Source of the DNA: Dissulfuribacter thermophilus
GTDB taxonomy: Bacteria; Desulfobacterota; Dissulfuribacteria; Dissulfuribacterales; Dissulfuribacteraceae
DNA length: 64,000 bases
NCBI RefSeq assembly: GCF_001687335.1
Contig: NZ_MAGO01000001.1
Span: forward strand, 248,001 to 312,000
Direction of reading: 5' to 3'
The notes below the pieces were generated by a model. That model ran no database searches. It saw nothing but the letters and a program-made list of their open reading frames with translations, and was not told the DNA's origin. Every line of letters begins with the position of its first letter. Position 1 is the first letter of the stretch. Of the stretch, positions 1 through 61,567 are shown piece after piece. The translations under genes were made by a program, and so were the position numbers.

Positions 1-35
1 ACAACGCAATAGATGCGGTGCCCTGGAAGCAAATA

Positions 36-1706
36 CTACATTGTTTCTGGCGCTTCTACCCCCAGAAGAGCAAGTCCGTTTCTTAAGACTTGTTTTACTC
101 CCCTGGCCAGATAGAGGCGGGCAAAAGTAAGTTCTTCTTCATCCGTAATGAATCTATGTTTGTTATAATAGCCATGAAGCTTTGATGCAAGCTCGGTGAG
201 GTAAAAGCTGAGTCCGTGCGGTTCAAAATTGATTGCACATGACTCTACTATTTTGGGAAAGGCCTCCAGCGCTTTTAGTATCGTAAGTTCCTCTTTGGTG
301 TTTAAGAGCTCCACTTTGGGCTGGTCTTTGAGTTCATCGGGATTAATTCCCTTTTCTCTTGCCTTTTCAAATACGCTTGAAAGCCTGGCATGAGCATATT
401 GTACGTAATAAACTGGGTTTTCTTGACTCTTCTTCCGAGCGACCTCCAGATCAAAATCTAGGTGGCTGTCTGAGCGCCTGGTGAGAAAGATAAACCTTGC
501 GGCGTCCTTTCCCACATCTTCTAGGACTTCTCTTAGGGTGACAAACTCACCTGCCCTGGTGCTCATGGCCTTCAATTTCCCACCTTCTAGGAGGTTTACA
601 AGCTGAACAAGTATTACCTTTAATCCTTCTGGGTCTTTGCCAAGGGCTTCTATGGCTGCCTTGACCCTTGGAACATAACCGTGGTGGTCAGCGCCCCATA
701 TGTCGACGAGTATATCGAATCCACGTTCGCACTTATTTCTGTGATAGGCTATGTCTGCAGCAAAGTAAGTGGTAACGCCATTTGAGCGTCGTACTACCCT
801 ATCTTTTTCATCCCCAAAGGCCGAGGATCTAAACCACAATGCCCCGTCCTTTTCATATATATGACCGCTTGCACGTAATTCCTCTATGGTTTGTTCAACA
901 AAACCTGAGTCATGTAAGGTTTTTTCACTAAACCAATTATCAAAAAGACAGTTAAAGTCCTCGAGGTCTTTTTTGATGCCGAGGCTAATGTCTTTTACTG
1001 CAACCTCAGTGAAAAAATCGAGGCACTCTTCTAATGGAACGTCAAGAAACTTGTCGCCCTGGGTCTCAACGACCTTTTTTGCAATTTCTCGTATGTATTC
1101 CCCTTGGTAACATTCCTTTGGAAATTCGATTTCACGTCCAAAGCATTCTTGATATCTAAGATAAACGCTTTTACCAAGGGTGTTCATCTGATTCCCGGCA
1201 TCGTTAATGTAGTATTCTCTCTGGACTTCATAGCCGGCAAAGTCAAGGATCCTGGCCAGACTGTCTCCAATGGCGGCACCTCTGCCGTGGCCAACGTGAA
1301 GCGGGCCTGTGGGATTGGCGCTTACGTATTCTACTAGTACCCTCTTGCCCTGTCCGGTGTCAGTTCTGCCGTATGCATCGCCTTGGGACAAGATGTTCTT
1401 CAAGTGTTGTTGCCAGTATGACTCAGCAATGAAAAAGTTTAGAAAACCTGGACCTGCTATCTCGATTTTTTTGAAGATTGAGTCCTTTTCAAGTAGGCCT
1501 TTTAAGATTTCGCCAATGGCCCTTGGGGGCATTTTTAAAGGCCCTGCCATGGCTAGTGCGATATTGCTGGAGTAGTCTCCATGGGCCTCTAGCTTTGGGG
1601 TAGAGATTTGGTGCCTGGGTTGAGCACCAGTTTGGGGCAAATCCCCATTTTCTACAGCGGAATTAAACGCCTCTATGACCTTATTATAAATAATTTTTTG
1701 TATCAT
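36..1706 (-). CDS. argS: Arginyl-tRNA synthetase
   Basis: Cytoplasmic class I synthetase that charges tRNA-Arg. The 556-residue product has the usual family length. An N-terminal Add-N tRNA-binding domain covers about residues 1-110. The HIGH signature reads HVGH at 137-140, and the region that replaces KMSKS reads KAMSTRAG near residue 380, which is the usual arginine-enzyme form. The C-terminal DALR helical domain ends in GLALLGVEAPETM, a typical ArgS tail. It is divergent from cysS across a 157-bp spacer. No Shine-Dalgarno is visible before the ATG; a TTGACA on the minus strand lies only about 33-38 bases upstream of the start, so the leader should be very short. The gene looks intact. Confidence 0.97.
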   Translation of the reverse strand: MIQKIIYNKVIEAFNSAVENGDLPQTGAQPRHQISTPKLEAHGDYSSNIALAMAGPLKMPPRAIGEILKGLLEKDSIFKKIEIAGPGFLNFFIAESYWQQHLKNILSQGDAYGRTDTGQGKRVLVEYVSANPTGPLHVGHGRGAAIGDSLARILDFAGYEVQREYYINDAGNQMNTLGKSVYLRYQECFGREIEFPKECYQGEYIREIAKKVVETQGDKFLDVPLEECLDFFTEVAVKDISLGIKKDLEDFNCLFDNWFSEKTLHDSGFVEQTIEELRASGHIYEKDGALWFRSSAFGDEKDRVVRRSNGVTTYFAADIAYHRNKCERGFDILVDIWGADHHGYVPRVKAAIEALGKDPEGLKVILVQLVNLLEGGKLKAMSTRAGEFVTLREVLEDVGKDAARFIFLTRRSDSHLDFDLEVARKKSQENPVYYVQYAHARLSSVFEKAREKGINPDELKDQPKVELLNTKEELTILKALEAFPKIVESCAINFEPHGLSFYLTELASKLHGYYNKHRFITDEEELTFARLYLARGVKQVLRNGLALLGVEAPETM

Positions 1707-1863: not shown

Positions 1864-3336
1864 ATGGCTATTACAGTATATTCATCGCATTTGAAAAAGA
1901 AGATCCCTTTCTCCCCTATTGAAGAGGGAAAGGTGCGAATGTATGTATGCGGAATTACCGCATATGACAGGTGCCATATTGGCCATGCCCGTTCCGCAGT
2001 GGTGTTTGATTCCATTTTCCGTTATCTCAGAGAAAAGGGTTTTGAGGTAAAGTTTATTAGGAATTTTACGGATATAGATGATAAGATTATTAACAGGGCC
2101 AAGGAAGAGGGCATTTCTCCGAAAGAGCTCGCTGAAAGGGAAATAGCCCATTTTTATGAGGATATGGACGCCCTAGGGATTGAAAGAGCAACTTTTGAGC
2201 CCAGGGCTACAGAGCATATCCCTGAGATTATTGCCCTGATCGAGACCCTGATTGAAAAAGGTCATGCCTATGAGAGGGGAGGAGATGTCTATTTCAGAGT
2301 GCGCACCTTCCCCCAATATGGTGAGCTTTCCGGGAGAAATATAGATGAGTTGAGGGCAGGGGCCAGAATCGATGTAGGTGAGCTGAAGGACGATCCGCTT
2401 GATTTTGCCCTTTGGAAAGGGGCCAAGCCAGGAGAGCCAAAGTGGGATAGCCCCTGGGGTGAAGGGAGGCCGGGATGGCATATTGAGTGTTCTGCAATGA
2501 GCATGAAATACCTCGGCAATACCCTAGACATCCATGGAGGGGGGCTAGACCTAATTTTCCCCCATCATGAAAACGAAAAGGCTCAGTCTGAGGCTGCTAC
2601 TGGGAGACCATTTGTCAACTACTGGCTCCACAATGGTTTCGTCACAATAAAAGGCGAAAAGATGTCCAAGTCCTTGGGTAATTTCATAACCATTAAGGAC
2701 ATCTTGAGTGAATTTCACCCTGAGGCCCTGCGTTTGTTCTTGCTGTCCAAGCACTATAGGAGTCCGTTGGACTATAGCCCTGAGGCCCTGCGTGAAAATG
2801 AGGCAGCTATATCGAGGTGCTACTATACACTATTTGAAGCCTTAGATGTCATTGAAGCTCCTGTTAAAAAGAAGCGGCCGATAGAAGGTCGGGCCCAGGA
2901 TGCCCTGAGGGAATTGGAGGGAGTCAAACAGGCATTTTATTCGGCCATGGACGATGATTTCAATACAGCGAAGGCCGTAGGTCATCTATTTGAAGGGATT
3001 CGCCACTTAAACACTGTTATAGAAGAGGCAAAACGCCGACCCTCAGCCCTATATAAGGATGAGTTACAAGAGGCACTGAAAACGTTTAGCACCATAGGTA
3101 AGGTGCTGGGTATTTTACAGGAAGATCCCAAAGAATTTTTAGAACGTAGAAATATCTCCTATCTTAAGAGTATTGGACTTACCAAGGAATATGTTGAAGA
3201 CGCCATAAAGAGGCGTGAACTGGCAAGAAAGGCCAAGGATTGGCAGACAGCAGATTCCATTAGGGATGAACTTCAAAGTAAGGGAATATCCCTCATGGAT
3301 ACTCCACAAGGGACGAGGTGGCGGATAGAAAAATAG
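1864..3336 (+). CDS. cysS: Cysteinyl-tRNA synthetase
   Basis: Cytoplasmic class I synthetase that charges tRNA-Cys; 490 residues is normal for the family. Zinc and active-site signatures are present: C29 just before the HIGH motif at 38-41, a second cysteine in HIECSAMS, and the FPHHENE segment. KMSKS is at 266-270. The C-terminal helical tRNA-binding part follows and ends in the typical RGTRW stretch. The chosen ATG gives the usual N-terminus (a few residues before the first strand). It is divergent from argS, and its own promoter sits close to the start codon. Its end faces the zinc-ribbon gene on the other strand. Confidence 0.97.
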   Translation: MAITVYSSHLKKKIPFSPIEEGKVRMYVCGITAYDRCHIGHARSAVVFDSIFRYLREKGFEVKFIRNFTDIDDKIINRAKEEGISPKELAEREIAHFYEDMDALGIERATFEPRATEHIPEIIALIETLIEKGHAYERGGDVYFRVRTFPQYGELSGRNIDELRAGARIDVGELKDDPLDFALWKGAKPGEPKWDSPWGEGRPGWHIECSAMSMKYLGNTLDIHGGGLDLIFPHHENEKAQSEAATGRPFVNYWLHNGFVTIKGEKMSKSLGNFITIKDILSEFHPEALRLFLLSKHYRSPLDYSPEALRENEAAISRCYYTLFEALDVIEAPVKKKRPIEGRAQDALRELEGVKQAFYSAMDDDFNTAKAVGHLFEGIRHLNTVIEEAKRRPSALYKDELQEALKTFSTIGKVLGILQEDPKEFLERRNISYLKSIGLTKEYVEDAIKRRELARKAKDWQTADSIRDELQSKGISLMDTPQGTRWRIEK

Positions 3337-3343
3337 AGCATTT

Positions 3344-3378
3344 GGGCCCCCTTTTTCACTTTTGAGAGGGATGGGCCC
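3344..3378. terminator. Possible bidirectional terminator hairpin
   Basis: Two GGGCCC blocks (3344-3349 and 3373-3378) with partly complementary C/T-rich and G-rich sequence between them lie between the convergent ends of cysS and the zinc-ribbon gene. The stem is imperfect and T-runs are short, so this is tentative. Confidence 0.35.
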
Positions 3379-3407
3379 TTTCCTGAGTTGGAACAATAGG
3401 AAGGGAG

Positions 3408-3737
3408 TTAAGGTTCAAGGCTCTTTTCCAAAACCTTTTGGAGTTCCTCGTCTTCTATTACATCCTCTATCTCTTTGATATCAATATCGATATCGGAATC
3501 CCCCAATTCCTCTTCTTCGCCTACGATTAAGTCGGAGACATCTATTTCAGAAAGATCTACAGATGGGGTAGCCTCAGGGGGCTGTGTCTCTGTAACAAGG
3601 TCTTGGAACCAGGAAAAGTCGGGTTCTGGCTGTGGGAATTGGCCGAGTTGTTTTTGGACTTCTGTAAGGTCCTCGCCACACGTGTTACAGATGCTAATAT
3701 GATCCCATGATATGTTGCCGCACTTGGTACACCTCAT
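3408..3737 (-). CDS. Small acidic zinc-ribbon protein of unknown function
   Basis: The 109-residue product begins MRCTKCG and carries two CxxC pairs (C3/C6 and C17/C20), the pattern of a zinc ribbon. The rest is strongly acidic, with repeated Asp/Glu runs around residues 75-105, and it has no membrane segment. The ATG at 3737 is preferred over one 60 bases upstream because AGAGG sits about 8 bases before it and the protein then starts directly with the ribbon. The family is not recognised. The ribbon plus acidic tail suggests a protein-binding adaptor, but that is a guess. It stands alone, divergent from mpl. Confidence 0.7.
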   Translation of the reverse strand: MRCTKCGNISWDHISICNTCGEDLTEVQKQLGQFPQPEPDFSWFQDLVTETQPPEATPSVDLSEIDVSDLIVGEEEELGDSDIDIDIKEIEDVIEDEELQKVLEKSLEP

Positions 3738-3821
3738 AAATGCCTCTTGTTTTTTAATGGTTATTCTGTAGTTATTAAATAGTAAGTTATTATTCAAATT
3801 TACAAAAGCAAAAACACTTTG

Positions 3822-3895
3822 TCCATTTGGTAAAGAAATGGATCGGGACTTTTCCCCTCAGTGGCCAATGCCCAAAGAGGGAAAAGTCTGTTTTT
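3822..3895 (+). other. Two consecutive hairpins in a divergent spacer
   Basis: A 7-bp stem (TCCATTT 3822-3828 with AAATGGA 3836-3842) is followed by a longer one (GACTTTTCCCCTC 3847-3859 with GAGGGAAAAGTC 3877-3888, a single bulged C) and then TGTTTTTGTC. It lies between genes that point away from each other, so it is not the 3-prime end of either. It could end a short RNA or act as a leader attenuator for mpl. Confidence 0.4.
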
Positions 3896-3933
3896 GTCTT
3901 GAGTGTGGATGTGGCCAATATTTTTTTGTTTGT

Positions 3934-4020
3934 ACCTAAATCCTGCAATTGACGAGTTTGCCCAAGATGCGAGGTGCGAGGGAGGTTTATTTGCCCCCTT
4001 TTGCCGTGCAGGATATAGGT
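3934..4020. repeat. Inverted-repeat element, family A, copy 1 (87 bp)
   Basis: The ends are ACCTAAATCCTGCA and TGCAGGATATAGGT, a 14-base terminal inverted repeat with one mismatch. The interior carries TTTGCCCAAGATGCGA near the left and TTTGCCCCCTTTTGCC near the right. Related copies are near 31.5, 57.7 and 61.5 kb. It ends 16 bases before the mpl start codon, so it would be part of that gene's leader. Confidence 0.8.
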
Positions 4021-4036
4021 TGTAAAGTGTGGACCT

Positions 4037-6548
<2,512 letters not shown>

Positions 6549-7025: not shown

Positions 7026-8249
7026 ATGAAGAAGCAAAATCTGTTTCTTTCAGTCTTAATCTTTTGTGTTTTTCTGATCTCCGGATGCGGATCAAAGGTC
7101 ATAGAGACAGTATCTCCCTTAACACCTCCTGTTTCTTCAGATACAAGTGGGATTAGTATAGCGATCCTTCCTTTAGCAGATTATACCAATGGCTATTCCA
7201 TAGATGATGCTGCTAGAAGGCAGATAAAGCTCGAAACCGCTATCAGCTATGAACTCACACGATTGGGGATCTATCCTGCTCTACAAGAAGATGTAATCCA
7301 GTGCCTTTCTGATATTGGAGTAATAAAAATAATAGAGACGCCAGAGGTAGGATCATCCCAGAGATTTATTCAACGTGAGCTGTCTTCTGGCTGGTCCGAT
7401 GAAATGCGTATGGAAGTGCAGAAGATCCTTGCATCTAATAGAGGGAGTTCTCGCTGGAACACAATAAAAACTAAAAAAATTGGTCTTGATCCAGGTACTC
7501 TCATGGCAATTGGCCAAAGGCTTGGGGTGGATTATGTCCTCAGAGGGCGGATTGTAGAATACGAGATTAGAGATGACCGTAACCTCAATCCATTGCAAAG
7601 GGGAATTCTCCCCTTCTTTTTTGATCTGAGTTCAGCAACTGTGTTTGGAGTTGCAAGATCAGACACTTATGATCTGTGGCATGATGTTAGTGTGGGAGGC
7701 CTTTTGGGGGCGGTATTTGGATCGTCAGCCAATCATCCCTTTAATGCTCCATCCAAAAAGACTAGTATTCTGAATGATGGGCATCCAAGGCTTGGAGACT
7801 CTGTAGTAAGTGAAAGCGGTGGATTCGATGGTTCCCATGGACTTAACGCCGCATTTTGGGGGGCTGCCGGAGCAGGCGCTGCCTATCTTGCCTACAATGG
7901 AGGGAAGGTGCCGGAAGCAGTGGTCCAGGTGACCTTGGCCCTTCAGGATGTCCATACAGGAAAAGTGCTGTGGGCCAACAGGGTAGAAAAAATGGTCCAG
8001 CCCAAAAGTGTCTGGTCAGATACTAGTGTTAGAACACAGGTTGATCTAGCTGTTGAAGAGGCAGCCAAGAGTCTTGTCCAGGGTCTCGCGAAGGTTTTAG
8101 AAAGTCTTACAAGAGAAGCTTCTAAAGAACACTTCACTTACTCTTTCAAGAAAACACCCAGTTTTGAAGAGGAGCTAAAGGTTATACCAAAGGTTCCAGA
8201 GACATTAGAGGAAAAAACAGGAGAGCTTCCTGAAGAATGGGGGTCATAA
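7026..8249 (+). CDS. Lipoprotein with a CsgG-like N-terminal region
   Basis: The N-terminus is a lipoprotein signal: a hydrophobic stretch ends in LISGC, with Cys21 as the lipidation site. Residues about 42-95 (ILPLADYT, a helix with YELTRLGI) and LGVDYVLRGRIVEYEI near 165-180 resemble the CsgG/TolB-N type fold used by curli-pore and related outer-membrane lipoproteins. A glycine- and alanine-rich segment near 280 may be a hydrophobic insertion. The assignment is by pattern only and function is unknown. AGGAGGC... is not seen, but GGAGGCC precedes the ATG. It overlaps the next gene by 13 bases, so the two are likely made together at the cell envelope. Confidence 0.7.
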   Translation: MKKQNLFLSVLIFCVFLISGCGSKVIETVSPLTPPVSSDTSGISIAILPLADYTNGYSIDDAARRQIKLETAISYELTRLGIYPALQEDVIQCLSDIGVIKIIETPEVGSSQRFIQRELSSGWSDEMRMEVQKILASNRGSSRWNTIKTKKIGLDPGTLMAIGQRLGVDYVLRGRIVEYEIRDDRNLNPLQRGILPFFFDLSSATVFGVARSDTYDLWHDVSVGGLLGAVFGSSANHPFNAPSKKTSILNDGHPRLGDSVVSESGGFDGSHGLNAAFWGAAGAGAAYLAYNGGKVPEAVVQVTLALQDVHTGKVLWANRVEKMVQPKSVWSDTSVRTQVDLAVEEAAKSLVQGLAKVLESLTREASKEHFTYSFKKTPSFEEELKVIPKVPETLEEKTGELPEEWGS

Positions 8250-29701: not shown

Positions 29702-31402
29702 ATGGCTCGTTCACACAAGGGAATCTATACAATTCCAGAGGTATTGGAGCGAAGCGCGAGTTCGTTTGGCAAAAAGCCAGCTCTCATAAAGCGCACAGAG
29801 AAAGGAGACGTTGTCACTACCTATGAGGATCTCTTTAAAAAAGTAAATCTCCTGGCCAGAGGTCTACTCAAACATGGCCTCAAACCTGGTGACAAGGTGG
29901 CAATTCTTGGGCCCAATTCTCCTGAGTGGGGAAAGGCATATCTTGCAACTGCTACGGTAGGCGGGATTTGTGTACCTCTGGATTCTCTGCTCACCCGAAA
30001 TGAGATAAATCACCTGTTGGCAGATTCCAGGGTGAAAGTGGCTTTTGTAGCTACAAGATTCCTCGATTGGGTCATGGAAAGAGAGTCCAAGTTCCCTGGA
30101 CCTGAAAAGATAGTGATCCTTGATTGGGAAAGAGGGGAGCCACCTTCTAGGACAGTGACCATAGACCAGCTCATGAGGGATGGGGAAAAGGGACCTACAA
30201 TAGAGTCTCGCCCCGCCCTTGAAGACCTGTGCGCCATAATATACACTTCCGGCACTACTGGGCGCCCCAAAGGGGTAATGCTCACCCACAAAAACCTCAT
30301 TTCAGACTGCGCTGCATGCTACCAGGCAGTAGATATAAGAGATGACCACTTCCTTAGCGTACTGCCAATGCATCACACATTTGAATGTACAGCTGGGTTC
30401 CTTCTGCCTATATATAGCGGCTGTACTGTGACGTATGCCCGGAGCCTAAAATCAAAATACATTATTGAGGATCTTAGGGCCTCAAAGGCTACTGTCATGC
30501 TAGGGGTGCCCCTTTTATTCCAAAAAATGCTTGAGGGCATTCATAGGGGCATTTCAAAGCAAACCCTTCTCAAACGAGGGGTGGTCCGAGCACTTATGAA
30601 TGCAGTAAAGACAGGAGAGAAGGTCGGGGCAAAGAATCTTGGGACCACTCTATTTAAAGGGCTCAGAGAAAAGGCAGGACTTGGTCATCTCAGATTGCTT
30701 GTAGTTGGAGGTGCCCCTATTCGCCCACAGATTCCAAGGGATTTTAGGCGCCTTGGACTCAAGATGTTACAGGGCTATGGGCTAACAGAGGCAAGTCCTG
30801 TACTCACCCTCAATCCTGAACATGCGCCAAAGGATGACAGTATAGGAAAACCGCTCCCGGGGGTTGAGGTAAAGGTGATTGATCCCAATGAGGACGGCGT
30901 AGGAGAGCTCGCATTTAGAGGCCCAATGATCATGAAGGGCTACTATAAGAACGATAAGGCCACAAAACAGGTGCTTACAGAGGATGGATGGTTGCTTACA
31001 GGGGATTTGGGTTGGATAGATAAACAAGGCTATTGCTATATTTCAGGGAGGGGCAAGAACCTGATCGTTACTTCTGCAGGTAAGAATGTCTATCCAGAAG
31101 AATTGGAGTCCCGATTAGTGGAAAGTCCTTACATCCTTGAGGCCATGGTATATGGCAAACCCTTACCTACAGGAGGAGAAGAGGTTAGGGCCATAATAGT
31201 GCCTGATTATGAGACTATCGGACAACACTATAAGAAGGGGCTTGCAGAACAGGAAATTCGGCGTCTTCTTTCAAAAGACGTTAAGAGGGTTAACCAAAAT
31301 CTTTCTTCTTATAAACGTATTAAGGGTTTCCTCATACGGGATGAAGAATTTCCAAAGACATCTACTAGAAAGATTAAGCGGCATTTAGTGCCTAAATCTT
31401 AG
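29702..31402 (+). CDS. Long-chain acyl-CoA synthetase (AMP-dependent synthetase)
   Basis: Activates fatty acids to acyl-CoA through an acyl-adenylate. The AMP-binding P-loop IIYTSGTTGRPKG is at about residues 178-190. YGLTEASPV (A5) and GWLLTGDLGW (A7) follow. The C-terminal Lys is in FPKTSTRKIKRH. 566 residues is a normal length. It sits four bases after the FadL-like gene, so fatty-acid uptake and activation are likely coupled. The stop codon lies at the edge of a family A repeat. The exact chain length is not known. Confidence 0.92.
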   Translation: MARSHKGIYTIPEVLERSASSFGKKPALIKRTEKGDVVTTYEDLFKKVNLLARGLLKHGLKPGDKVAILGPNSPEWGKAYLATATVGGICVPLDSLLTRNEINHLLADSRVKVAFVATRFLDWVMERESKFPGPEKIVILDWERGEPPSRTVTIDQLMRDGEKGPTIESRPALEDLCAIIYTSGTTGRPKGVMLTHKNLISDCAACYQAVDIRDDHFLSVLPMHHTFECTAGFLLPIYSGCTVTYARSLKSKYIIEDLRASKATVMLGVPLLFQKMLEGIHRGISKQTLLKRGVVRALMNAVKTGEKVGAKNLGTTLFKGLREKAGLGHLRLLVVGGAPIRPQIPRDFRRLGLKMLQGYGLTEASPVLTLNPEHAPKDDSIGKPLPGVEVKVIDPNEDGVGELAFRGPMIMKGYYKNDKATKQVLTEDGWLLTGDLGWIDKQGYCYISGRGKNLIVTSAGKNVYPEELESRLVESPYILEAMVYGKPLPTGGEEVRAIIVPDYETIGQHYKKGLAEQEIRRLLSKDVKRVNQNLSSYKRIKGFLIRDEEFPKTSTRKIKRHLVPKS

Positions 31403-31403
31403 G

Positions 31404-31625
31404 CCTAAATCCTGCACGGCAAAAGGGGGCAAAAATGGTTTTTAAACAGTATGTCATCCAGTTGCTTGACAAAAAACATAGATTTAACCTTCACTGTTTT
31501 AGTGAGTACAGAATTCATTTGATTTTGCCCCCTTTTGCCGCCCTTCGGGATTGGCGATTTTGCCCAATCTTCTATGTTGCTCGGGGCTCGAATCTTGGGC
31601 AAACTCCCCAATTGCAGGATTTAGG
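31404..31625. repeat. Inverted-repeat element, family A, composite copy 2 (222 bp)
   Basis: The ends are a perfect 13-base inverted repeat, CCTAAATCCTGCA and TGCAGGATTTAGG. Inside, GGCAAAAGGGGGCAAAA (31418-31434) is repeated in reverse at 31523-31539. A further partial unit, ATTGGCGATTTTGCCCAA at about 31550-31567, resembles the left end of the other copies, so this looks like two elements nested or fused. It starts one base after the synthetase stop codon. Confidence 0.78.
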
Positions 31626-31682
31626 TTAAACTATCATGACGACGGAATTCGTCACCCGCGTGGATGAAAATAGGTATAGTAA

Positions 31683-31876
31683 GAAGGTAGAAGGGAGAAG
31701 GTAGAAGCTTTTAAAAGTGTTGAGCACTTCAGAAGTGTTGAGTGTTGAGTTTTAAGTTTTGAGTTGAAGGAAGGAAATTTTGAACCTTTAACTTTTTTGA
31801 TGTCTTCGCCTTTTGGCCTCTGACTTTTGTACATGCAGGGCTTGCTTCTTCCTTCTACCTTCTGCCTTCTACCTGT
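31683..31876. repeat. Element of family B, GTAGAAGG-type ends
   Basis: Starts with repeated GAAGGTAGAAGG and ends with the complement CCTTCTACCTTCTGCCTT. The interior has heptamer-like TTGAGTT repeats (about 31736-31776). The right end, read in reverse, shares GGTAGAAGGAAGAAGCAAGC with the copy near 57.85 kb. No coding capacity was recognised. With the family A copy it fills most of the 527-base gap before the helicase gene. Confidence 0.62.
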
Positions 31877-57687: not shown

Positions 57688-57720
57688 ACCTAAATCCTGA
57701 AATTGGCAAGTTTGCCAGGT
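57688..57720. repeat. Partial family A element (copy 3)
   Basis: ACCTAAATCCTGAAATTGGC followed by AAGTTTGCC matches the left end of family A copy 1. The right end is missing, so it looks truncated. Confidence 0.6.
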
Positions 57721-57852
57721 CTAAAGCCAGGGTACTGTTAAAGTTTTGAGTTTTGAGTGATGAGTTTTGAGTTAAAGGAAGAAAATATTTTCAAAAATGC
57801 TAGAAATATAGATATTTCCCGTGAAAAATACGTGCTTCCCGCTCTTTACATG

Positions 57853-57968
57853 AGGTAGAAGGAAGAAGCAAGCACTGCCCACACCAAAGCCCAGCGGCCA
57901 ACTGGGATCGGTCCTGAAATCTTGAATCTTGAATCTTGAATTTTCTTCTCCCTTCTCCCTCTTTTACC
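57853..57968. repeat. Element of family B, third copy
   Basis: Begins AGGTAGAAGGAAGAAGCAAGC, the same 20-base stretch seen in reverse at 31.85 kb. Contains the stem CCCAGCGGCCAACTGGG and ends in CTTCTCCCTTCTCCCTCTT. No open reading frame. Confidence 0.62.
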
Positions 57969-61404: not shown

Positions 61405-61481
61405 CTTTTGTTCATTGAATGATACTTGTCAACAGGAAATTTGTGTGCTTTTTCACGGTAATATACTACAATTGTCTAGTA

Positions 61482-61567
61482 TTAACCCAAATTATGCAAT
61501 TGGCGAGTTGCCCACGATGCAAGGGGGACCGGTTTGCCTCCTTTTGCAGTGCATAATTTGTGATTAA
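61482..61567. repeat. Inverted-repeat element, family A, copy 4 (86 bp)
   Basis: The inner stem CAAATTATGCA (61488-61498) and TGCATAATTTG (61550-61560) is perfect, and the outer TTAA blocks also match. Compared with copy 1, the stem has changed at several positions on both sides. The interior keeps ATTGGCGAGTTGCCC and GCCTCCTTTTGC. It lies in the cbiA upstream region and before the next plus-strand gene. Confidence 0.8.

What the first reader, a model, noticed from the sequence alone, without database searches (positions are those of the whole stretch)
3934..4020. 86-bp inverted-repeat family with compensating stem changes
Copies at 3934-4020, 31404-31625, 57688-57720 and 61482-61567 share ends and inner motifs. 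Two full copies are about 86 bases but have different stem sequences (CCTAAATCCTGCA against CAAATTATGCA), while each stem still pairs with its own partner. That suggests selection on a hairpin rather than on sequence alone, or a mobile palindrome such as a MITE or REP-type element.
Basis: partly seen in the sequence, partly recalled or inferred. Interest (0 to 1): 0.6.

Follow-up and report, generated by a model that had tools for sequence, protein, structure and literature searches.

The report
Jumping DNA carrying a conserved hairpin
The repeats are small non-coding jumping elements that borrow another element's transposase, and they carry a complex hairpin whose shape is preserved across a bacterial phylum and which also turns up inside a second, differently ended kind of element.

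Summary
The repeat family is real and genome-wide. The window copies are short or partial versions of a ~255-bp non-coding element with 13-bp terminal inverted repeats (TIRs). In the source genome 36 of 52 copies have perfect 5-bp target duplications (shuffled mean 1.7). The two 'different stems' are two TIR types, A (CCTAAATCCTGCA) and B (CCCAAATTATGCA), with different target rules (TNNNA; NTNAN), not compensatory mutations of one stem. Type B equals the TIR of an IS1380-family subgroup whose own duplications fit NTNAN. These are therefore MITEs, mobilised in trans. The source genome has no IS1380 gene, and no transposase with type-A ends was found.

Beyond the finding, the interior holds a ~106-nt hairpin core with very strong covariation. 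A model of it hits 40 of 395 genomes of the phylum. The core occurs behind many IS1380-type ends, and also inside ~160-bp elements with IS66-like ends and 8-bp duplications, including in the source genome. The autonomous IS loci examined lack it, Rfam has no match, and its function is unknown. I judge it a new variant of a known kind: MITEs with a conserved, end-independent structured cargo.

The parts
3930..4024 (+). Short class I MITE, type A TIR (element 3935-4019) with 5-bp target duplication TTGTA at both sides
31404..31625 (-). Near-full class I MITE, type A TIR (CCTAAATCCTGCA both ends); lacks about 35 bp of the core; no perfect target duplication; one base separates it from the stop of the gene at 29702-31402
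31542..31612 (-). Structured core hairpin of that copy (71 bases on the 106-position model), CM R1 65.5 bits, E 3.3e-15
57689..57717 (+). Left-end fragment (TIR with 1 mismatch plus the start of the core stem), no right end seen
61481..61567 (+). Short class I MITE, type B TIR (element 61486-61562) with 5-bp target duplication ATTAA at both sides
1..36 (+). Right end of a class II element (3' part of a core plus TIR ...GCAAATAC) that begins outside the window (core match C1:247933-248038, i.e. to window 38)

Best explanation
The repeats are non-autonomous transposons (type II MITEs: similarity to the parent IS confined to the TIRs). Shown: 13-bp TIRs, 5-bp target duplications, many copies, intergenic placement, and type B TIRs identical to those of an IS1380-family subgroup in relatives, with the same target rule (NTNAN). 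Inferred: the IS1380 transposase binds the TIRs and moves the element in trans by DDE chemistry; type A ends belong to a different, probably also IS1380-like, transposase that I did not find; in this genome the elements are at present without a known transposase. Shown in addition: full-length copies enclose a ~106-nt hairpin core that keeps its fold while its stems change sequence, across the phylum, behind many end types, and inside a second element class with IS66-like ends and 8-bp duplications. Inferred: the core is a module acting as a folded single strand (RNA transcript more likely than ssDNA), kept for its structure and recombined between transposon ends; what it does for element or host is not known.
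For: Target duplications: 36 of 52 copies perfect, 5 more 4/5, against a shuffled mean of 1.71 and maximum of 6 in 2000 shuffles. Target rules: type A TNNNA (19 and 19 of 20), type B NTNAN (16 and 16 of 16). IS1380 subgroup: in 18 of 19 named loci an inward-facing TIR-like site (2 mismatches or fewer) lies beside the transposase, exactly CCCAAATTATGCA in 4 of 19; where both ends are visible (7 loci), perfect 5-bp duplications in L132 TTGAA, L133 TTTAT, L140 ATAAT, L143 TTAAT (script) and L137 TTCAT (read by me from the same output), all fitting NTNAN. Same TIR or a near form at transposase remnants in the order: L092, L094, L097, L098, L099. IS1380 (ISEc9) IR ACGTAGAATCTAGG and 4-5 bp duplications: PMC12116815, passages. 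Placement: 35 of 37 elements outside ORFs of 120 aa or more, against 500 of 1617 random points. Structure: 94.1% cells paired, 38 of 69 pairs doubly changed, 0 of 500 shuffles; core phylum-wide 93.6% paired, 339 double-change cells vs 104.5 shuffled and at most 85 when slid, covariation 0.639 vs 0.199. Distribution: 17 of 46 genomes of the order, 40 of 395 of the phylum, 83 distinct core places in this genome. Second class: perfect 8-bp duplications in 5 of 12 and 3 of 8 in this genome, control 2 of 982. Autonomous loci lack the core: 1 hit in 32 loci, L138:1135, outside the IS at 2527-4198.
Against: No IS1380 gene in this genome and only 8 of 46 genomes of the order have one, so current mobility is unproven. 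No autonomous element with type A ends was found, either in the 19 IS1380 loci or as a long TIR pair in 7 relatives. 16 of 52 copies lack a perfect duplication, including window 31404-31625. Of 75 core places examined here, 25 showed no TIR pair by my criteria. The strand-polarity test was not significant in the 45 full-length copies (24 vs 17 interior pair columns, p 0.35), though it was in the phylum-wide sets (18 vs 4, p 0.004; 21 vs 6, p 0.006); shared ancestry and strand-biased deamination could mimic it. Covariation counts are not corrected for phylogeny.
Confidence: 0.85

Rival explanations
1. Ordinary MITEs only: the core is neutral filler that happens to be palindromic, and its paired stems are kept alike by quasi-palindrome correction (template switching between the arms during replication), not by selection.
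For: Deleted copies without most of the core keep perfect duplications (13 of 23 copies under 200 bp), so the core is dispensable for an inserted copy. Arm-to-arm correction would also produce changes on both sides. The polarity test was weak in the order-level set.
Against: Correction should make arms perfectly complementary, yet internal loops keep asymmetric, unpairable sequence (AGATNC..AAGGCG opposite CAACNCAGNAGAT) and near-constant sizes across the phylum. The opposite strand of the same sites scores far lower with the model (for example L041 135.5 vs 45.4 bits). The core keeps its form behind unrelated ends and in two element classes. G-U exceeds A-C cells 149 to 40.
Confidence: 0.3
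2. The core is a structured RNA transcribed from the plus strand of the element, for example a regulator of the transposase, a host-hijacking RNA or a ribozyme-like unit.
For: Closely similar minimum-energy RNA fold in strongly diverged cores (z -2.5 to -7.8 in 6 of 6 cores), G-U over A-C polarity, conserved internal loops.
Against: No expression data; no Rfam match; order-level polarity not significant; DNA energy parameters also give a hairpin better than shuffles in 2 of the 3 cores tried, L160 not.
Confidence: 0.4
3. REP-type or tandem regulatory palindrome unrelated to DDE transposition.
For: Short palindromes in intergenic DNA.
Against: TIRs plus 5-bp (class I) or 8-bp (class II) duplications; TIR identity with an IS1380 subgroup.
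Confidence: 0.03
4. Simple internal-deletion derivatives (type I MITEs) of the IS1380 elements.
For: Shared TIRs.
Against: Sequence just inside the TIRs differs between IS and MITE, and the core is absent from the IS loci.
Confidence: 0.07

Closest known systems
Prokaryotic MITEs, type II (review PMC10969869: passages and section 2.2 read)
   Same: Under 500 bp, TIRs, target duplications, AT-rich intergenic targets, stable stem-loops, size variants, similarity to the IS only in the TIRs
   Different: A core conserved phylum-wide by covariation, independent of the ends and shared between two element classes; I found no such statement in the passages read
Chunjie MITE of Geobacter uraniireducens (only its description in PMC10969869 read; the original paper is not held)
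   Same: A 235-bp MITE family with many shortened copies, in intergenic DNA of Geobacter (recalled as belonging to the same wider group)
IS1380 family (ISEcp1/ISEc9; PMC12116815 passages)
   Same: TIR form starting CCY.., 4-5 bp duplications, PF13701 transposase
   Different: MITEs encode no protein; the matching type B TIR belongs to a subgroup seen in MAGs titled Deltaproteobacteria, Chloroflexi and others
IS66 family (PMC11946415 passages: IR starts GTAAGCG, 8-bp duplications)
   Same: Class II ends GTAAGCGTTCACAGGG and 8-bp duplications
   Different: IS66 genes found in G248 and G365 do not carry that TIR; the link is by resemblance only
TIMEs (Tn3-derived MITEs; PMC4133298 passages)
   Same: Non-autonomous, 5-6 bp duplications, predicted conserved folding of transcripts
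   Different: Tn3-type 38-bp IRs, different ends

Membership tests
MITE (type II) | Short, non-coding, multicopy, with terminal inverted repeats | tested here: met
   54 TIR-paired elements of 60-283 bp
MITE (type II) | Target site duplications | tested here: met
   36 of 52 perfect 5-bp; shuffled mean 1.71, max 6
MITE (type II) | TIRs match an autonomous IS, interior does not | tested here: met
   Type B: IS1380 subgroup, core absent from the IS loci. Type A: no IS found
MITE (type II) | Movement by a transposase acting in trans | not testable with these tools
   Needs a transposition assay
MITE (type II) | Empty sites in close relatives | not tested
   No strain of the same species or genus was at hand; only other genera of the family (G004, G005)
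IS1380-mobilised element | 5-bp duplications with the same target rule as the IS | tested here: met
   Type B 16 of 16 NTNAN; IS 5 of 5 perfect duplications (4 by script, L137 read by me; 2 further loci with both ends have none)
IS1380-mobilised element | IS1380 transposase in the same genome | tested here: not met
   PF13701: 0 matches at E 0.01 in G000; present in G022, which also has type B MITEs
IS66-mobilised element (class II) | TIR starting GTAAGCG and 8-bp duplications | tested here: inconclusive
   Elsewhere in the phylum: right end GTAAGCGTTCACAGGG and perfect 8-bp in 5 of 12. In G000 the right end reads GTATTTGCTCACAGGG, with 3 of 8 perfect 8-bp
IS66-mobilised element (class II) | IS66 transposase gene flanked by the same TIR | tested here: not met
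   IS66 genes in 2 of 6 genomes, no TIR within 4 mismatches in L218, L219
REP element | Palindrome without TIR/TSD, moved by a REP-associated tyrosine transposase | tested here: not met
   TIRs and duplications present; the transposase itself was not searched
Known RNA family (Rfam 15) | Match to a covariance model | tested here: not met
   No element match at gathering in the window (2 tRNAs only) nor at E 1 in six loci

The most novel reading that the evidence does not exclude
The ~106-nt core is an undescribed class of structured nucleic acid (most likely an RNA) of this phylum (probably Desulfobacterota) that has been recruited into non-autonomous transposons of at least two unrelated transposase families, and that does something for the element or host important enough to conserve its internal loops and geometry across dozens of genera.
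Probability: 0.42. Interest if true: 0.8.

Novelty: new variant of a known kind. Interest (0 to 1): 0.62.

Why it matters
MITE interiors are usually treated as decaying filler. Here the interior is the most widely conserved part, outliving the ends: it sits behind many IS1380-type TIRs and behind IS66-like ends, with strong covariation in its stems. If that reflects function, MITEs can act as vehicles for structured RNA or ssDNA modules, and the ~80 core places in the window's genome would be a ready system to test what they do. It also gives two clean target rules tied to two TIR types, which makes trans-mobilisation testable.

Tried and rejected
Compensatory mutation of one outer stem: rejected, since the stems are TIR types with separate target rules and some copies mix types.

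REP-type element: rejected on target duplications. Internal-deletion derivative of an IS1380 element: rejected because subterminal sequence differs and the IS loci lack the core.

Search for an autonomous type A element: PF13701 in the order and phylum, TIR pairs in 7 relatives and 19 IS1380 loci gave none. One search repeated the order search under the name 'class' and returned the same 46 genomes, so it added nothing. Generic IR searches around IS1380 loci with wrong gene bounds (and most) were uninformative and were redone.

Plasmid and phage collections: no match. Rfam: none. Literature: searches turned up no description of this family. That says only that nothing was found in this open-access library with those terms; the Chunjie paper is not held.

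Strand polarity: not significant on 45 full-length copies, significant on phylum-wide sets; I treat it as suggestive. An automatic TIR-plus-duplication search for class II in this genome returned none for all 12 loci; reading the flanks by eye and then testing right flanks alone gave 3 of 8.

Rows dropped: 4 overlapping false pairs before the duplication count; 10 opposite-strand rows and one identical row before the count; 5 of the 50 full-length copies (two with insertions, three with large deletions) before alignment A3, and 3 of 50 before A4; 45 cores chosen by me from the 86 rows for A6; 8 of 83 core places without enough sequence in hand.

Full report
All four places hold related sequence. 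The two 'full 86-base' copies are an 85-bp element at 3935-4019 and a 77-bp element at 61486-61562; they are flanked by 5-bp direct repeats TTGTA and ATTAA. The place 31404-31625 is one 222-bp element in minus orientation. 57689-57717 is a left end without a right end.

GENOME-WIDE FAMILY. A search of the source genome (G000, 2.52 Mb, 27 contigs) gave 100 matches for the first copy and 65 for the last at E 10. TIR-like ends number 243 against 15 for the reversed pattern. In the stretches read, 58 TIR pairs were found, 4 of them false overlaps, leaving 54 elements. The typical element is 253-259 bp; 23 of the 52 with both flanks are under 200 bp. The two window copies are such deletion forms. 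Of 37 elements with a 3-kb locus, 35 lie outside ORFs of 120 aa or more, against 500 of 1617 random points.

DUPLICATIONS AND TWO END TYPES. Of 52 elements with both flanks, 36 have identical 5-bp flanks and 5 more match at 4 of 5; re-pairing flanks at random gave 1.71 on average and 6 at most in 2000 trials. Type A (CCTAAATCCTGCA-like ends) has perfect duplications in 20 of 31 copies, with T first in 19 of 20 and A last in 19 of 20. Type B (CCCAAATTATGCA-like) has 16 of 21, with T second and A fourth in 16 of 16. Two target rules for two end types imply two transposases. The 'compensating' stem change is therefore an end-type difference. Mixed copies exist.

THE TRANSPOSASE. The type A TIR recalled to me the ISEcp1/IS1380 form; a paper passage gives ISEc9 IRL ACGTAGAATCTAGG and 4-5 bp duplications for the family (PMC12116815, passages). 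IS1380 (PF13701) is absent from G000, and present in 8 of 46 genomes of the order at E 1e-5 and 7 of 395 of the phylum at E 1e-60. Several order members carry the type B TIR, or a near form (CCCGAATTATGCA, CCCGGATTATGCA), beside the gene: L092, L094, L097 on both sides, L098, L099. One scan of named genomes with that subgroup (A2) returned 19 loci. In 18 of 19 an inward-facing TIR-like site within 2 mismatches lies beside the gene; it is exactly CCCAAATTATGCA in L129, L132, L138 and L147. Perfect 5-bp duplications appear in L132 TTGAA, L133 TTTAT, L140 ATAAT and L143 TTAAT; I read L137 TTCAT from the same output. L135 and L138, also with both ends visible, have none. All five fit NTNAN. So type B elements are MITEs of this IS1380 subgroup. 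No autonomous type A element was found.

FULL-LENGTH ARCHITECTURE. Forty-five full-length copies from G000 and 10 other genomes of the order were aligned (A3; 5 of 50 copies left out). A structure of 69 pairs in 7 helices (TIR stem, a long interrupted hairpin P2, a small hairpin P3, a long stem P4 enclosing a small hairpin P5) is paired in 94.1% of cells, has 38 pairs with changes on both sides and 183 such cells; shuffles give 88.1%, 19.4 and 52.1 with none of 500 reaching the observed values, and slid structures give at most 50.0%, 17 and 38. The TIR stem contributes 5 of the 38 pairs, so 33 of the 56 interior pairs have double changes.

THE CORE IS WIDER THAN THE ENDS. A covariance model of the P2 hairpin (R1, 106 positions) hits 40 of 395 genomes of the phylum at E 0.001, 33 of 246 genera. 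In G000 it gives 104 matches at 83 distinct places; of the 75 with enough sequence in hand, 50 have a TIR pair and 36 a perfect 5-bp duplication. Elsewhere in the phylum the same core sits mostly in elements of about 200-260 bp with other CCY-type TIRs (CCTAAATTGAGCG, CCTGAATTTTGCA, CCTAAACGTTGCA, CCCGGATAATTCA and others), several with perfect 5-bp duplications; some loci showed no TIR pair. On a plain MAFFT alignment of 45 diverse cores (A6), with the fold predicted for one of them, 93.6% of cells pair; 28 of 34 pairs have changes on both sides in 339 cells (shuffled 104.5; slid at most 85), and the covariation score is 0.639 against 0.199. Internal loops keep sequence (AGATNC, AAGGCG, CAACNCAGNAGAT; consensus) and nearly constant size.

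A SECOND ELEMENT CLASS WITH THE SAME CORE. Twelve loci with an outer stem like GTAAGC..GCTTAC, picked by me, were examined: those with a clear left end are ~158-161-bp elements with ends such as GTAACCGTTCACGGGG / GTAAGCGTTCACAGGG, and 5 of 12 have perfect 8-bp duplications. G000 has a version ending GTATTTGCTCACAGGG; 3 of 8 examined have perfect 8-bp duplications, against 2 of 982 random 8-mers. One such right end is window 1-36, itself without a perfect duplication. IS66 inverted repeats are said to start GTAAGCG with 8-bp duplications (PMC11946415, passages). IS66 genes occur in 2 of the 6 genomes searched but lack this TIR, so the IS66 link rests on resemblance. Autonomous loci examined do not contain the core: the single hit in 32 loci (L138:1135) lies outside the IS.

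STRAND. If a single strand is selected, G-U pairs should exceed A-C mismatches. In the 45 full-length copies the interior shows 24 vs 17 pair columns (p 0.35); in 75 distinct phylum-wide cores 149 vs 40 cells and 18 vs 4 columns (p 0.004); on A6 115 vs 28 cells and 21 vs 6 columns (p 0.006). A5, used, was fitted to the model; A6 was not. Shared ancestry and strand-biased deamination are not excluded.

HOW IT LIKELY WORKS. Shown by sequence: non-autonomous elements with transposon ends and duplications, type B ends shared with IS1380, and a conserved hairpin core in two element classes. Inferred: trans-mobilisation by IS1380-type (class I) and perhaps IS66-type (class II) transposases; loss of those transposases in this genome; a core acting as a folded strand. 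Not shown: mobility today, transcription, or any function of the core. The core is not needed for a copy to persist, since shortened copies keep duplications (13 of 23).

NOVELTY. MITEs are known, and size variants and stem-loop transcripts are described (PMC10969869, passages and section 2.2). What I did not find described is a covarying core shared phylum-wide and across end types.

Noticed in passing
L022 (C12:22947-23229) and L028 (C8:116540-116820) of the source genome: Each MITE copy carries an extra ~25-30-bp palindrome (CCTGCCCTGTACAGACA..TGTA.AGGG) at a different internal position: a second, REP-like small repeat inserted into the MITE.
   Followed up: no
window 1-36: Right end of a class II element with the same core, cut by the window's start.
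   Followed up: yes
L103 (G004:C195, about 7790-8126): Three element ends in close succession, possibly one class I element inserted into another; a nested pair could serve as an internal empty site.
   Followed up: no
L092 / L129 (G022): The IS1380 copy seems to interrupt a radical-SAM gene resembling YgiQ (name recalled).
   Followed up: no
window 29702-31402: Only one base separates the gene's stop codon from the element that begins at 31404.
   Followed up: no
window 31680-31790 and 57740-57870: Low-complexity GTTTTGAGTTTTGAGTG / GTAGAAGG(A)AGAAG stretches beside two of the copies, apparently another dispersed repeat.
   Followed up: no
L147: A ~315-bp remnant with IS1380-like TIRs on both sides and a fragment of the transposase, an intermediate between IS and MITE.
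   Followed up: no
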